This document shows positions 2,532-63,100 of a stretch of 64,000 nt of DNA, piece after piece (the first letter of the stretch is position 1; every line of letters starts with the position of its first letter). Location of the stretch: contig NZ_CP006367.1 in NCBI RefSeq assembly GCF_001442755.1, positions 620,001-684,000 of the forward strand, given 5' to 3'. Source of the stretch: Aureimonas sp. AU20 (GTDB lineage: Bacteria > Pseudomonadota > Alphaproteobacteria > Rhizobiales > Rhizobiaceae). The notes beneath the pieces were generated by a model. That model was not told where the DNA came from. It was given only the letters and a program-made list of their open reading frames with translations, and ran no database searches. The position numbers were made by a program, and so were the translations under genes.

Positions 2532-3003
2532 GGGCGGGCTTTCCTGACGCGGGGGCGGTGCGCGGTTGCGGGTTCCTCCGCGAAGTAACGATTCCCTCGG
2601 CGTTTCGCCAGCGCTTCCAACTCGGCCCCGGGTTTCGTGCTGCGCGCCGGATCGGCCGGAACGCCAGACGCGGAGGGTCCTTGGCGCCTACCTCGCGACC
2701 CCGTCGGCCTTTTCCCCGTCATCCCGAGGGCGAGCCGTGCCGCGCGGGCTGCAAAAGCGCGAGGGTTGGCCCGCCCGTCCGCAGGCCTCGTTGCCCATCT
2801 CCGCCGATGGCCCCTTGCAGTCCTCACGTCCGGCGCCTTGCGAAGGGACAAACCTCATGCGCTGGCTAGGCTCCGCCATGGTCGAACAGGCCGGTAATTC
2901 GGCCGGCATGACGACGGCCGGGGGCGGCTGCGACCCCGCGCAAGCCCTGTTCATGGCCGAAAACAGTCTCTAGAGAACTTCCAAGTTTCAGGAAGGCCGA
3001 GAC
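2532..3003. other. Divergent tsaD/hemC intergenic region (472 bp)
   Basis: No gene is supported here. The region must hold the promoters of the two divergent operons. Most of it, 2732-2892, is a diverged copy of the 161-bp palindromic interspersed element described separately. The segment 2980-3003 contains the hemC ribosome binding site, AGGAAGG followed by eight bases and ATG. Confidence 0.6.
2732..2892. repeat. Palindromic interspersed element, copy E (diverged)
   Basis: This 161-bp stretch matches the other copies in length and in the order of its blocks. It opens with GAGCC, shares GCCCGTCCGCA with the copy at 32359, then CGTTGCC followed by an ATC..CGCCGATGGC block, then GGCGCCTTGCGAA matching GGCGCCTCGCGAA of the copy at 33268, and closes with GTCGAACAGGCC, nearly the same as the 60619 copy. 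It is the most diverged copy, and the assignment rests on several short blocks in the same order over exactly the same length. Confidence 0.6.
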
Positions 3004-18177: not shown

Positions 18178-18253
<76 letters not shown>

Positions 18254-29847: not shown

Positions 29848-31068
<1,221 letters not shown>

Positions 31069-31114
31069 GCTTCGGAAAGTCCCCGAAAAAGAGAGGAAAC
31101 GCTCCTGGAGCCTG

Positions 31115-31275
31115 GAGCCTGTTCGGGCACTCGGTCGGGTCGGTCCGACGGTGCTTTTCGCCGCCCCTTCGTCGCCTGTCCTCGCGGATGCGCGCTCGCA
31201 TCGCTCGAGGCCGGCGCCTCGCGGCGTCGAAAAATCCCTCGACGGCCCCCCGCCGACGAATGTCCAATCAGGCTC
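31115..31275. repeat. Palindromic interspersed element, copy A
   Basis: A 161-bp element with terminal inverted repeats, GAGCCTG at the left and CAGGCTC at the right. The left half continues with GGTCGGGTCGGTCCGACGG, as in the other copies. The interior has CTTTTCGCC on the left facing GGCGTCGAAAAA on the right, and GATGCGCGCTCGCATC at the tip, so a single strand can fold end to end. No open frame or transposase is inside. It fills the gap between argG and the PAP2 gene and ends five bases before the PAP2 stop. Confidence 0.8.
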
Positions 31276-31280
31276 TTAGC

Positions 31281-32216
31281 TCAGGCCGCCGCACGAAGAA
31301 AGAGTGCGCGCGCCTGCACCGCCGCATCGCGCCCGAACACCCGCAGCCGCTTGAGCGCGCGGGCGAGCGGCGCGCGCCAGCGCCCGTCGATGCCGCCGTC
31401 GATCGCCGCCGCATGCCGCGCGAAGACGCGGCCGAGAAGGAGCGCCGTCAGCGCGACGACGAGCCAGGACACCAAGACGTCGGACAGGAAATGGCTGCCG
31501 AAGGCCACGCGATTCAGCGAGAAGACCAGCATGGGAAGAAGCAGCGTGAGGCCGGCGCGAAGCCGCAGCCCGCGCGGCGCGAGCATCGCCAGCGCCATCA
31601 TCGCCATGGCGGAGGCCGCTTCGCCGGAGGAAAAGGAGCAATTGGTCCGGCAGGCGTCGGAGAACTGCCAGGCGACGGTGAAGCGGTCCTCGCCGCCGAA
31701 GGCCAGAATGTGCTCGGGCCGGGCGCGGCCGACCGTGTTCTTCAGCATATGCACGATGCCAAGACAGGCGACGAGATAGACCGATAGGACATGCAGGATC
31801 GCATGGGGCGGGGGGAGGAAGCGCCGCGCGCCCCAGAGCCCGCGCGCCAGAAGAAGCAGGGCGAGCGCAGAGGCGATCCAGATCGGCAGCACCCGGTTGA
31901 GGTCGCGGATCGCCAGCAATCCTTCGTCGCGCGACAGCGGAAAGCCCTGGCCCGGCACCGCGAAAAGGCCGGACACGGCAAGGTCGAGATGCGGAAAGGC
32001 GGCGAAGGCGAGACTGACTAGAACGAGAAGCGCGAAAAGGGCGCTAGCCGGGCGGTCGCGCACAAGGCTCCGGCCGCGCGCCAAGGCATCCTCGAATCGG
32101 CCCGGTCGCGCCAAGCTTCGGCGCCGATCGAAATTCGAGGTCCCAGTCCAAACCACGCGCTGCTCCCACGTCATGTTCGATTCGCGCGCGGATCCATGGG
32201 GAGGGCGCACGTCCAT
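31281..32216 (-). CDS. PAP2 superfamily phosphatase (lipid phosphatase-like)
   Basis: The 311-residue membrane protein has about six hydrophobic helices. The three PAP2 motifs are present but altered. Motif 1 is KNTVGRARP (159-167), intact. Motif 2 reads SSGEA (about 196-200), where the usual PSGH histidine is a glutamate. Motif 3 is NRVAFGSHFLSD (235-246) with Asn in place of Ser, keeping the nucleophilic His242 and Asp246. Members act on lipid phosphates such as undecaprenyl pyrophosphate, lipid A phosphate or phosphatidate. Substrate not visible. MTWEQRVV, 14 residues in, is an alternative start. A TATAAT box lies upstream. Confidence 0.85.
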   Translation of the reverse strand: MDVRPPHGSARESNMTWEQRVVWTGTSNFDRRRSLARPGRFEDALARGRSLVRDRPASALFALLVLVSLAFAAFPHLDLAVSGLFAVPGQGFPLSRDEGLLAIRDLNRVLPIWIASALALLLLARGLWGARRFLPPPHAILHVLSVYLVACLGIVHMLKNTVGRARPEHILAFGGEDRFTVAWQFSDACRTNCSFSSGEAASAMAMMALAMLAPRGLRLRAGLTLLLPMLVFSLNRVAFGSHFLSDVLVSWLVVALTALLLGRVFARHAAAIDGGIDGRWRAPLARALKRLRVFGRDAAVQARALFLRAAA

Positions 32217-32274
32217 TGCCGTATCGGCGCGGATGATGACGAGGACTTGTTGAATTTATGTCGCGGCTATGAAA

Positions 32275-32280
32275 ATTATA
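32275..32280 (-). promoter_or_regulatory. Candidate -10 box for the PAP2 gene
   Basis: On the minus strand this is TATAAT, a perfect consensus -10, about 58 bases before the PAP2 start. No good -35 hexamer is found at 16-18 bases (CTAAAT lies at 17). The call rests on the -10 and on the AT-rich setting. Confidence 0.35.
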
Positions 32281-32358
32281 TTCCAAGGGGGAATGAAATT
32301 TAGGGTGTCTTACTAATAAGAATGCTTCGATACTTGGCGCCTTGCAGTCGATGCCTCG

Positions 32359-32519
32359 GAGATTGTTTGGCAACTCGCTCGGGTCGGTCCGCCGTCGCCC
32401 GTCCGCACGGACCGTTGCCGATCCTCGCCGATGGCATAGGCATCACTCAGGTTTGGCGCGCCGTGAACGCATGAAAAACTCCTCGACGGCTTTCCTCCGC
32501 CGGGTCGTCGAACAGTCTC
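32359..32519. repeat. Palindromic interspersed element, copy B
   Basis: A 161-bp copy bounded by GAGATTGTTTGG and CGAACAGTCTC, which are inverted complements with a few mismatches. It shares CTCGGGTCGGTCCG, TCCTCGCCGATG and a GGCATCACTCAGGTTTGGCG segment (given here in part) with the copy at 33268. It lies directly upstream of the LysE gene. Confidence 0.8.
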
Positions 32520-32590
32520 TTGAAAACCGGCTTGTTTTCCTTTCGGCTTCGGGCGACATCGAAGGGCACGCGCCCGAAAGACGGTGGCCC

Positions 32591-33229
32591 ATGACCTTTC
32601 TGCCCGACGCTTCCGCCCTCCTCGCCTTCACGCTCGCCGCGATCGTGCTCACGATCACGCCGGGGCCGGACATGACGCTGTTTCTGGGGCGCACGCTGGC
32701 GCAGGGGCGGCGGGCCGGGATCGCGGCCATGCTGGGGGCCTGCTCGGGCGTCCTCGTTCACACCACGCTCGCCTCGATCGGCCTGTCCGCCCTGGTGGCC
32801 GCTTCGCCGGAGGCCTTCCTGGCGCTGAAGGTGGCGGGCGCGGCCTATCTCGCCTGGCTCGCCTTCGCCGCCATCCGCAACGGCTCGTCCTTTTCGCTGG
32901 AGCGGGAGGCGATGGCGCCGCAGCCCTTTCTGCGAAATTGGCTGACGGGGGTCGGGATCAATCTTCTCAACCCGAAGATCATCCTCTTCTTCGTCACCTT
33001 CCTGCCGCCCTTCGTGGCGGCGAACGATCCCTACGCCGGGCAGAAGCTGTTCTTCCTCGGCGTTTATTTCATCGTGATCGCGGTGCCCATGTCGATCGGC
33101 ATGATCTTCGCGGCTGACCGGATCGCCACGACCCTCAAGAAGAAGCCCAGCGTGATGCGCGCGATCGACTGGGTCTTCGCCTCGGTCTTCTCGGCCTTCG
33201 CCGTCCATATCCTTCTCGCCCGCGTCTGA
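32591..33229 (+). CDS. LysE/RhtB family amino-acid exporter
   Basis: The 212-residue protein has the RhtB/LysE pattern: first helix AFTLAAIVLTITPGPDMTLFLGRTLAQGRRAGIAAMLGA (quoted across its conserved core), the ITPGPD motif at about 19-24, then GTGVNLLNPK-like TGVGINLLNPKIILFFVTFLPPF. Six transmembrane helices are expected. Family members export basic or neutral amino acids or homoserine; substrate unknown. Start is the ATG beginning MTFLPDASA. The longer in-frame reading upstream covers the interspersed element and is rejected. Confidence 0.92.
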   Translation: MTFLPDASALLAFTLAAIVLTITPGPDMTLFLGRTLAQGRRAGIAAMLGACSGVLVHTTLASIGLSALVAASPEAFLALKVAGAAYLAWLAFAAIRNGSSFSLEREAMAPQPFLRNWLTGVGINLLNPKIILFFVTFLPPFVAANDPYAGQKLFFLGVYFIVIAVPMSIGMIFAADRIATTLKKKPSVMRAIDWVFASVFSAFAVHILLARV

Positions 33230-33267
33230 GGCGGGGCGGGGATGATGCGGCAAAGGGTCAGGGCTAA

Positions 33268-33429
33268 GAGCCTGTTTGGAAACTCGGTCGGGCCGGTCCG
33301 ACGGTTCTTTTTCGCCATCACTTCGTTGCCAATCCTCGCCGATGCCGCCGGCATCACTAAAGTTTGGCGCCTCGCGAACGGCGAAAAGTCGCTCGCCGGC
33401 CCTCCGCCGCCGAGTTTCCAAACAGCCTC
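33268..33429. repeat. Palindromic interspersed element, copy C (best preserved)
   Basis: A 162-bp element whose ends are near-perfect inverted repeats: GAGCCTGTTTGGAAACTCGG at the left and CCGAGTTTCCAAACAGCCTC at the right (one mismatch). Further in, CTTTTTCGCC faces GGCGAAAAG, and the tip holds GATGCC..GGCATC. The complete element can fold into one long imperfect hairpin. It lies between the LysE and EamA genes, ending 18 bases before the EamA start. Confidence 0.88.
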
Positions 33430-33447
33430 CAAGCCGGCGGCGCTCTG

Positions 33448-33867
33448 ATGGGCTGGCTCGGCTGGGCGCTCGCCTCGGCGGCGTTCGCCGCGCTCACCGC
33501 CATCTTCGGCAAGATCGGCGTCACCGGCGTCCAGTCCGACTACGCCACCTTTCTGCGCACGCTGGTGATCCTCGCTCTGATCGCCGGCATCGTGACGGTC
33601 GGCGGCCATTGGCGCAGCCCCGCCGGATTGCCCGGGCGCTCGCTCGCCTTTCTCGTCCTGTCGGGCCTTGCCACCGGCGCGTCCTGGCTCTGCTACTACC
33701 GCGCCCTGCAACTCGGCCAGGCGGCCGAGGTCGCGCCGATCGACAAGCTTTCCGTGGTTCTGGTCGCCCTGTTCGGCACGCTCTTTCTGTCGGAGCGACT
33801 GAGCCTCACGGGCTGGGCCGGCATCGCCCTGATCGCCACCGGCACGGTGCTCGTCGCCTGGCGCTGA
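33448..33867 (+). CDS. EamA-domain small transporter (half-size DMT protein)
   Basis: The 139-residue protein has a single EamA unit: WALASAAFAALTAIFGKIGVTGV at the start, then LAFLVLSGLATGASWLCYYRALQLG, APIDKLSVVLVALFGTLFLSERLS, and a last helix GWAGIALIATGTVLVAW. About five transmembrane helices. Full-size drug/metabolite transporters have two such units, so this one probably works as a dimer, as known for the short EamA (YcxC/RarD-like half) proteins. It is not a truncation, since start, stop and all helices are intact. Substrate unknown. Confidence 0.9.
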   Translation: MGWLGWALASAAFAALTAIFGKIGVTGVQSDYATFLRTLVILALIAGIVTVGGHWRSPAGLPGRSLAFLVLSGLATGASWLCYYRALQLGQAAEVAPIDKLSVVLVALFGTLFLSERLSLTGWAGIALIATGTVLVAWR

Positions 33868-35209: not shown

Positions 35210-35592
35210 AACGGCGAGGGGCTCGGTCCTTATGTCATGGGCATCGCGAACGATCGGGCTTCGCGCCCGCACATTCCTCGAACTTCGCTTCTCGCGCCGG
35301 GGCAACCATCCATCGCCTGTGACAGCGTCGAGCGCTCTTGGAACGCGGAGCAAGACCTGCGGACGGAGGATGGGCGAGTTTTTCGTCCAGAGACGAGGAG
35401 CGAAGCTTAAGTGATGCCTGCGGCAGGCCTAAAGCATCGCGACGACGCCCTCGGCGAAAAGACCCCTCCAGCCGCACCACGACGTTTTGTTGGCTGCTTC
35501 GGGTGATGCCTGCGGCTTAGCTCAAGCCTTCGCGGCGAGGGGAGCGGGTAAACGCCCCATGCAGCCGACACCACAGCTTTTGTCGCAGGGTC
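35210..35592. other. Intergenic region carrying direct repeats (383 bp)
   Basis: No gene. The region lies between convergent genes, so it should hold no promoter for either neighbour. The right half (35413-35590) is a pair of direct repeats described separately. The left half has no recognised feature. Confidence 0.5.
35413..35590. repeat. Two diverged direct repeats, 92-bp period
   Basis: Unit 1 starts at 35413 and unit 2 at 35505. Both begin with GATGCCTGCGGC and share, in order, a short AAGC..TCGCG.CGA block, a CCCC..CAGCCG block, CCAC, and CTTTTGT or GTTTTGT. Overall identity is about 60-65 percent by eye. No open frame uses the period. The origin is unknown. Confidence 0.65.
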
Positions 35593-60618: not shown

Positions 60619-60746
60619 GAGCCCGTTCGGGCTCTTGGCCGGGCCGGTCCGACGGGGCCTTTTCGCCGTCGCCCGTCGGCCTGGACCGTTGCGGATAGGC
60701 CTTCGCATCGCTCAGGTCCGGTGCCTCGGGAAGGTCGAACAGGCTC
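60619..60746. repeat. Palindromic interspersed element, copy D (shortened)
   Basis: A 128-bp copy that opens with GAGCCCGTTCGGGCTC and continues with GGCCGGGCCGGTCCGACGG and CCTTTTCGCCGTCGCCCGTC. The interior GCATCGCTCAGGTCCGGTGCC aligns with the other copies (here quoted in parts), and it closes with GTCGAACAGGCTC. Compared with the 161-bp copies, about 33 bases of the right arm are missing. It lies between the Lon-domain and Trm112 genes, 10 bases after the stop. Confidence 0.75.

Positions 60747-61110: not shown

Positions 61111-63100
<1,990 letters not shown>

What the first reader, a model, noticed from the sequence alone, without database searches (positions are those of the whole stretch)
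31115..33429. Family of about 161-bp self-complementary interspersed elements, five copies in 64 kb
Copies at 2732-2892, 31115-31275, 32359-32519, 33268-33429 and a shortened one at 60619-60746 share terminal inverted repeats (GAGCCTG...CAGGCTC), the same order of internal blocks (a GGTCGGG.CGGTCCG block, CTTTTCGCC, a TCCTCGCCGATG block, GGCGCCTCGCG) and almost exactly the same length. Each can fold end to end as a long hairpin with a small tip stem. None has an open frame. All are intergenic, and three lie within 2.3 kb around the PAP2, LysE and EamA genes. This is the profile of a non-autonomous mobile element or a RIME/REP-like palindrome family. Whether it is already described in this lineage I cannot tell.
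Basis: partly seen in the sequence, partly recalled or inferred. Interest (0 to 1): 0.75.

Follow-up and report, generated by a model that had tools for sequence, protein, structure and literature searches.

The report
Mobile DNA repeat with swappable ends
The repeats are copies of a tiny hairpin-shaped mobile DNA element that makes no protein and is probably moved by enzymes of larger elements; its middle is kept while its two ends come in several versions, which suggests it can borrow different movers.

Summary
The repeat is real: a ~161-bp MITE (non-autonomous transposon) of Aureimonas. A covariance model gives 115 rows in the window's genome, both strands counted. It matches 13 of 21 genomes of the genus, own included, and is patchy elsewhere in the class (12 of 289, own included, few of them clear). 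Inverted repeats starting GAG, a 3-bp TNA target duplication (55 of 121 filtered copies exact, offset controls 2-6) and empty sites in relatives fit IS5-family (IS1031-type) transposition.

Types A, B and D have target duplications and resemble ends of autonomous IS5-family elements in Aureimonas or other bacteria. A core-only, poorly resolved tree needs 9 changes of end type where 3 is the least. The only precedent my searches showed is in corals.

One at 35341-35500 was missed. How ends are exchanged, and what the core does, is inferred.

The parts
31115..31275 (+). Type A copy, 161 bp, between argG and the PAP2 gene; right-hand target copy TTA at 31276-31278, left-hand flank CTG (decayed copy, inferred from the empty sites)
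   Evidence: 121.5 bits E 1e-27; empty site in G019 and G016
32359..32519 (+). Diverged type A copy, 161 bp, between the PAP2 and LysE genes
   Evidence: 87.1 bits E 2e-19
33268..33429 (+). Type A copy, 162 bp, between the LysE and EamA genes; flanks TAA | CAA (one difference)
   Evidence: 162 bits E 2e-37 (a training row of the model); no element between the same genes in G019, G010, G004 and G002
35341..35500 (-).
   Evidence: 24.6 bits E 2.3e-4; local alignment 197 vs 65 shuffled; sequence
60619..60746 (+). Shortened type A copy, 128 bp
   Evidence: 35.8 bits E 5e-7
2732..2892 (+). Possible decayed relic; not significant in the model search
   Evidence: 12.2 bits E 0.22; local alignment 97.5 vs 69.7 +/- 5.7 shuffled

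Best explanation
A family of MITEs moved in trans by IS5-family (IS1031-type) DDE transposases. SHOWN: a ~161-bp element with 16-20 bp inverted repeats, a 3-bp TNA duplication (fullest motif CTNAG), empty sites in relatives, and autonomous IS5-family elements with similar TIRs. SHOWN: a ~120-bp core and the total length are kept while the TIR pair comes in at least three types that bear target duplications (A GAGNCYGTYYGRAAA, B GAGCGCCTAACAAAACCT, D GARCYGGGGACAAAACC), plus a rarer type C without them. INFERRED: the transposases hold the ends, so each TIR type lets the core use a different mover; cores pass between co-resident types by recombination or gene conversion through the shared core, or one end is copied to the other through the hairpin. 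INFERRED: insertion does little harm because in this GC-rich genome the target motif often is a stop codon, and duplicating TAA or TGA restores it.
For: Copies: 115 model rows in the own genome, 13 of 21 genus genomes. Target duplications, with ends chosen without regard to flanks: A 26/60, B 18/34, D 11/20, C 0/7; five control offsets over all 121 give 3, 6, 2, 3, 3; TNA at 90/121 left and 90/121 right flanks. Empty site at 31115 in G019 and G016; no element between LysE and EamA in G019, G010, G004, G002. ISs with similar ends (53 loci scanned for ends flanked by TNA, 11 candidates printed): D-like in the own genome (C2:441513-442354, TAA/TAA; C1:2237206-2238062, TTA/TAA), B in G008 (two of 845 bp, exact TSDs), A-like in G010 (911 bp, TTA/TTA) and G003 (907 bp, no exact TSD), A in Acetobacter and Komagataeibacter (884 bp, no exact TSD) and a Pyrinomonadaceae MAG (853 bp, TAA/TAA). 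PF01609 matches at the Aureimonas ones. Between-type identity (A, B, D) 30-51% in TIRs, 62-75% in the core. Core tree: 9 type changes, least possible 3, shuffled mean 52.9. Stops: 26 of 63 copies have a gene stop within 2 nt of the target copy; of non-coding CTNAG sites 19 of 39 in the window and 30 of 82 in flanks are exactly stop codons.
Against: No A- or B-type IS was found in the own genome among 8 PF01609 matches, so present mobility of most copies there is unproven. D copies are few in the own genome (1 passes the filter). Only 22 of 79 own-genome copies, and 14 of the 27 best, have an exact duplication. Type C has none (0/7). TNA flanks were a search condition, so they are no evidence there; one printed candidate (L405) is not of GAG type and probably chance. 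The core tree has 118 columns for 121 rows and 45 of 117 branches open. Copies were found with a core-based model, which favours core conservation. Direct evidence for end exchange is thin: 4 of 149 copies are called differently at the two ends, 2 of them clearly, and neither of the 2 has a target duplication.
Confidence: 0.85

Rival explanations
1. The TIR types did not switch; they diverged step by step with their transposases from one ancestral MITE, and the core is simply slower to change.
For: Intermediates exist within type A (GAGCCTGTTTGGAAA, GAGCCCGTCCGGAAA, GAGACCGTTCGAGA) and B and D share the inner ACAAAACC; the candidate partner ISs show a like series.
Against: In the core tree B, D and C each fall in more than one place; starred branches alone force at least 3 (A), 2 (B), 2 (D) and 3 (C) changes, though the tree is weak. 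TIRs are normally the part a transposase holds fixed (general knowledge).
Confidence: 0.25
2. The core is kept because it works as RNA or DNA structure for the host (regulatory RNA, terminator or mRNA stabiliser), and mobility is secondary.
For: On A3, 93.1% of cells paired, 20 of 32 pairs with a two-sided change (12.1 in shuffles), slid versions 28-42% paired. Across types A-D, 91% of TIR and 93% of core cells paired against at most 62% and 82% in shuffles. TIR mismatches that are G-U on the antisense strand outnumber those that are G-U on the sense strand 82 to 42 after removing group-fixed ones. Terminator-like sites on the sense strand in 54 of 121 copies, shuffled 10%; 7 in window 30900-33600 against 2.3 in shuffles.
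Against: Further pair types on A3 do not exceed shuffles (37 against 34.5), and across types the number of core pairs with two-sided changes (10) is reached by shuffles and by slides of +1 and +2. Counts are not independent: distinct type-position classes are 46 to 31. Substitution direction shows no bias in TIR (92 of 189), paired core (105 of 209) or unpaired core (113 of 221) columns. Antisense terminator excess is small (9 of 121, shuffled 5.8%). Orientation to co-directional neighbours is 16 same, 16 opposite. No Rfam match at E<=1 on four loci. Hairpin-templated repair would also keep the arms matched.
Confidence: 0.15
3. REP/BIME-type palindromes moved by a RAYT tyrosine transposase.
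For: Extragenic, palindromic, multi-copy.
Against: ~161 bp with long TIRs and a 3-bp TNA duplication, ends like those of DDE-transposase ISs. RAYT genes were not searched for.
Confidence: 0.02

Closest known systems
CMITEs of Acropora corals (PMC2872659; abstract start in a search listing, and passages)
   Same: Families with different TIRs sharing a conserved internal region, homogeneous size, diagnostic target duplication (TTAA); the paper itself raises cross-mobilisation by several transposases.
   Different: Eukaryotic, piggyBac-type, about 100 bp. Here bacterial, IS5-type, TNA, ~161 bp.
IS5 family, IS1031-type insertion sequences (group features recalled; ISfinder not available)
   Same: GAG...CTC ends and TNA duplication; TIR types resemble the ISs.
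   Different: No transposase gene; the core has no convincing match to those ISs (best 29 bp, E 0.011, in the first 15 of 465 rows printed).
CIR elements of Caulobacter (Chen and Shapiro 2003; not held; known only from passages of the review PMC10969869)
   Same: Intergenic repeats of an alphaproteobacterium that the review treats with MITEs.
   Different: Sequence could not be compared.
RIME of Rhizobium (Osteras 1995; not held)
   Same: Intergenic repeats in rhizobia (recalled, and title in a reference list).
   Different: Sequence could not be compared.
Br-REP1 and Br-REP2 of Bradyrhizobium (PMC5082802, passages)
   Same: Alphaproteobacterial intergenic palindromes.
   Different: Short units of about 20-40 nt with other consensus sequences; no TIR/TSD structure in the passages seen.

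Membership tests
Bacterial MITE | Short (70-300 bp) with terminal inverted repeats (definition as in a passage of PMC3733652) | tested here: met
   121 copies of 156-165 bp with at least 12 of 16 end bases complementary; these limits were also the filter, and 50 of 171 copies failed type, length or TIR limits
Bacterial MITE | Target-site duplication | tested here: met
   55 of 121 exact 3-bp, controls 2-6
Bacterial MITE | No coding capacity | tested here: met
   Any frame open 97% vs 96% shuffled; one frame 79% vs 51% in related copies
Bacterial MITE | Multi-copy, with empty sites | tested here: met
   (empty sites examined at three places, clear at 31115 and at LysE-EamA, unclear at 32359)
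Bacterial MITE | Autonomous partner with matching ends | tested here: met
   A, B and D types have ISs with similar ends; within the own genome only D-like
Bacterial MITE | Mobilised in trans by the partner transposase | not testable with these tools
   needs an experiment
IS1031-type (IS5 family) derivative | GAG ends and TNA duplication (group definition recalled) | tested here: met
   TNA left 90/121 and right 90/121
IS1031-type (IS5 family) derivative | Internal deletion of a known IS (core shared with the IS) | tested here: not met
   no convincing match of the core to the ISs found
REP (GTAG/CGTC) | 20-40 bp palindrome | tested here: not met
   element is ~161 bp
CIR / RIME | Sequence of the published consensus | not testable with these tools
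   papers not held

The most novel reading that the evidence does not exclude
A bacterial MITE lineage persists across orders of Alphaproteobacteria by keeping a functional structured core and repeatedly exchanging its end pair, so that it can follow whichever IS5-family transposase is present; the exchange goes through its own hairpin or through core-to-core gene conversion, and the antisense transcript of the core is under selection to fold. (Probability lowered from 0.25 to 0.2 on rechecking, because paired columns show no directional substitution bias.)
Probability: 0.2. Interest if true: 0.78.

Novelty: new variant of a known kind. Interest (0 to 1): 0.58.

Why it matters
MITEs are usually seen as deletion derivatives tied to one parent transposon. 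A bacterial MITE whose core outlives its ends would show how non-autonomous elements survive the loss of a parent and cross species. With A, B and D types side by side in one genus, and ISs with similar ends at hand, it makes the question 'what, besides the ends, must a MITE keep?' directly testable. The overlap of target motif and stop codon also gives a simple reason why such elements can sit tightly against genes.

Tried and rejected
Plasmid collection search with one copy: no match. Rfam: no match over the element at gathering score in the window, none at E<=1 on four loci. 10-mer text search of papers: 277 papers; the 20 listed are, by their titles, unrelated work. Own-genome PF01609 transposases tested for type A ends: none. 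Host-terminator idea: site excess mainly on the sense strand, orientation even, so not adopted. RNA-folding strand bias: first looked strong (102 against 37 parsimony events in the TIR, 52 against 27 in the core), weaker by distinct classes (46 to 31), 82 to 42 after removing group-fixed mismatches, and no directional substitution bias in any column class; kept as a hint only. Coding hypothesis: rejected, though one frame is open more often than in shuffles. Stop-codon targeting beyond the motif: not supported, since CTNAG sites are themselves often stops (copies were scored within 2 nt, control sites exactly). 16S search for the rrn-plasmid species: no match, but the control rang in only 9 of 14 genomes, so nothing follows. 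The MAFFT alignment of five regions with flanks misaligned the ends and was not used.

Rows dropped: of 115 model rows I carried 80 places (best strand per place, at least 35.8 bits; left out were second-strand rows, short or partial rows and weaker rows), widened the ends of a few by hand, and lost one without a held flank, leaving 79. With 92 copies from relatives, 171 were classified; 50 failed the type, length or TIR filter, leaving 121. Of the relatives' matches only those fetched were classified, and one fetched stretch (L354) was not used. Of 91 stretches the script read the first 80.

Full report
WHAT IS THERE. The window lies on contig C1 of a 5.21-Mb, nine-contig genome. The genus is taken as Aureimonas: contig G016:C3 has the length (576187) of A. 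ureilytica NZ_ARQE01000003. The own genome may be strain AU20 (recalled, not tested).

A GENOME-WIDE FAMILY. R1 gives 115 rows at E<=0.01 in the own genome, both strands counted and only 150 of 7202 candidates scored. Within the genus 13 of 21 genomes, own included, match at E<=1e-4, with 99 rows in the own genome, 63 in G019, 41 in G016 and 23 in G008. A TIR pattern scan (91 stretches; the first 80 examined) showed ~161-bp elements whose core resembles ours in Rhizobium sp. Leaf262, Chelatococcus reniformis, Elstera litoralis, Sandaracinobacter neustonicus, two 'Rhizobiales bacterium' isolates and an alphaproteobacterial MAG; core z-scores against shuffled letters 6.7 to 10.6 outside Aureimonas. 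Elements with the same ends but another inside (z -0.4 to 2.6) were seen in Sphingomonas palustris, a Poribacteria MAG, Saccharopolyspora elongata and one 57-bp Rhizobiales element.

IT MOVES. With ends set by inverted-repeat match alone, 55 of 121 copies have an exact 3-bp duplication (A 26/60, B 18/34, D 11/20, C 0/7) against 2 to 6 at five control offsets; TNA stands at 90 of 121 left and 90 of 121 right flanks. Relatives G019 and G016 show the empty site of 31115, with a single TTA where the element sits in the own genome; the own left flank reads CTG, so its copy of the target has decayed. Between LysE and EamA the relatives G019, G010, G004 and G002 have no element, and in the last three the two genes overlap at TGATG. 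In G016 EamA did not align there, so it says nothing. At 32359 the intergene of G019 did not align clearly.

ONE CORE, SEVERAL ENDS. Copies with the same core carry different TIR pairs: A GAGNCYGTYYGRAAA, B GAGCGCCTAACAAAACCT, D GARCYGGGGACAAAACC, C GAGTG-CTTTCGA and similar. Consensus lines run side by side through the core and part at the ends; between-type identity among A, B and D is 30 to 51% in the TIRs and 62 to 75% in three core segments. Lengths in the 121 filtered copies (filter 155 to 166) are 156 to 165 bp, with 159 and 161-163 making up 107; before filtering, own-genome copies also include forms of 197-254 bp and 53-70 bp. The core-only tree needs 9 changes of type where 3 is the least; starred branches alone force 3 (A), 2 (B), 2 (D) and 3 (C). 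The tree is poorly resolved (118 columns, 45 of 117 branches open), and copies were found through the core, so core conservation is partly an effect of the search; the coral paper names the same bias for its own case.

THE LIKELY MOVERS. IS5-family transposases were sought and their ends looked for, first freely, then with TNA flanks as a condition (53 loci, 11 candidates printed, one of them, L405, not of GAG type). Found: two D-like ISs in the own genome (C2:441513-442354, 842 bp, TAA/TAA; C1:2237206-2238062, 857 bp, TTA/TAA), B in G008 (two of 845 bp, TSD TAA and TTA), A-like in G010 (911 bp, TTA/TTA) and G003 (907 bp, no exact TSD), A in Acetobacter conturbans and Komagataeibacter xylinus (884 bp, no exact TSD) and a Pyrinomonadaceae MAG (853 bp, TAA/TAA). 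The match of D MITE ends to the own-genome D-like ISs is close but not exact, and only one own-genome D copy passes the filter. No type C partner was found. The MITE core has no convincing match in these ISs (best printed 29 bp, E 0.011), so it is not simply an internal deletion of one of them.

WHERE IT SITS. Of 63 copies of at least 60 bits, 20 lie between convergent genes, 32 between co-directional genes (16 in each orientation), 9 between divergent genes and 2 at an edge; 4 of the 63 overlap a predicted gene (home-made gene calls; the window's own intergenes are 38 tandem, 10 divergent, 9 convergent). In 26 of 63 a gene's stop codon lies within 2 nt of the target copy. This needs no extra preference: 19 of 39 non-coding CTNAG sites of the window, and 30 of 82 in the flanks, are exactly stop codons. 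The duplication of TAA or TGA leaves the gene intact.

STRUCTURE. The element folds end to end. On the 28-copy alignment the paired share (93.1%) and two-sided changes (20 pairs) exceed shuffles and slides, further pair types do not (37 against 34.5). On 51 non-redundant copies of all types the paired share exceeds both controls in TIR (91%) and core (93%), but the number of core pairs with two-sided changes (10) is reached by shuffles and by two slides. The antisense strand folds more stably in 117 of 121 copies, and TIR mismatches lean to those that are G-U there (82 to 42 after removing group-fixed mismatches; 46 to 31 by distinct type-position classes). Against this, substitution direction shows no bias in TIR, paired or unpaired core columns. 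This is at most a hint of an antisense RNA. Hairpin-templated repair is an equally simple reason for matched arms, and would also offer a way to copy a new end to the other side (inference).

HOW ENDS MAY CHANGE. Of 149 copies with both ends recognised, 145 have the same type at both; 4 are called differently, 2 of them clearly (A/B, 213 bp; D/B, 166 bp), and neither of the 2 has a target duplication. They look like products of recombination through the shared core. A double exchange would put one core between another type's ends. This step is inferred.

COMPARED WITH WHAT IS KNOWN. It works like, and meets the tested criteria of, a bacterial MITE. The feature 'different TIRs, conserved inside' has been described for coral piggyBac MITEs (PMC2872659, passages). 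In nine searches of the open library the listed rows showed no bacterial case and no MITE of Aureimonas; these searches see only open-licence papers and list only top rows. CIR and RIME could not be compared.

VERDICT. A real, widespread MITE family with unusually modular ends. Mobile nature near certain; repeated end exchange probable; function of the core open.

Noticed in passing
G000:C1:353406-353640, 470350-470564, 567226-567458, C3:86017-86250 and others: A longer subfamily (about 197-254 bp) carries an extra stretch between positions 54 and 57 of the 161-bp form.
   Followed up: partly
G000:C1:3589033-3589088, 1099908-1099977, 3695048-3695100: Mini copies of 53-70 bp consisting of little more than the two TIRs; the first has a TCA/TCA duplication, so very short forms may also move.
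   Followed up: partly
G000:C2:283644-283858 and C1:2157603-2157766: Hybrid copies with different TIR types at the two ends (A/B and D/B).
   Followed up: yes
window 61112-61214 (+): TPP riboswitch, 77.3 bits.
   Followed up: no
window 18181-18253 (-): tRNA gene, 62.9 bits.
   Followed up: no
G034 (another family of the order), L036, L046, L057: A genome outside the genus carries 161-162 bp copies while four genomes of other genera in the window's own family had no match in the same DNA search (20 or fewer candidates scored each), suggesting horizontal transfer.
   Followed up: no
L136, L137, L143 (Sphingomonas palustris MAG): Elements with type A ends but an unrelated inside; L136 and L137 with exact TNA duplications, L143 not: another MITE family apparently using the same kind of transposase.
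   Followed up: no
G000 whole genome: No 16S rRNA gene found by the family search; the control rang in only 9 of 14 genomes and stretches may be masked, so nothing can be concluded. [quoted passage not shown]
   Followed up: no
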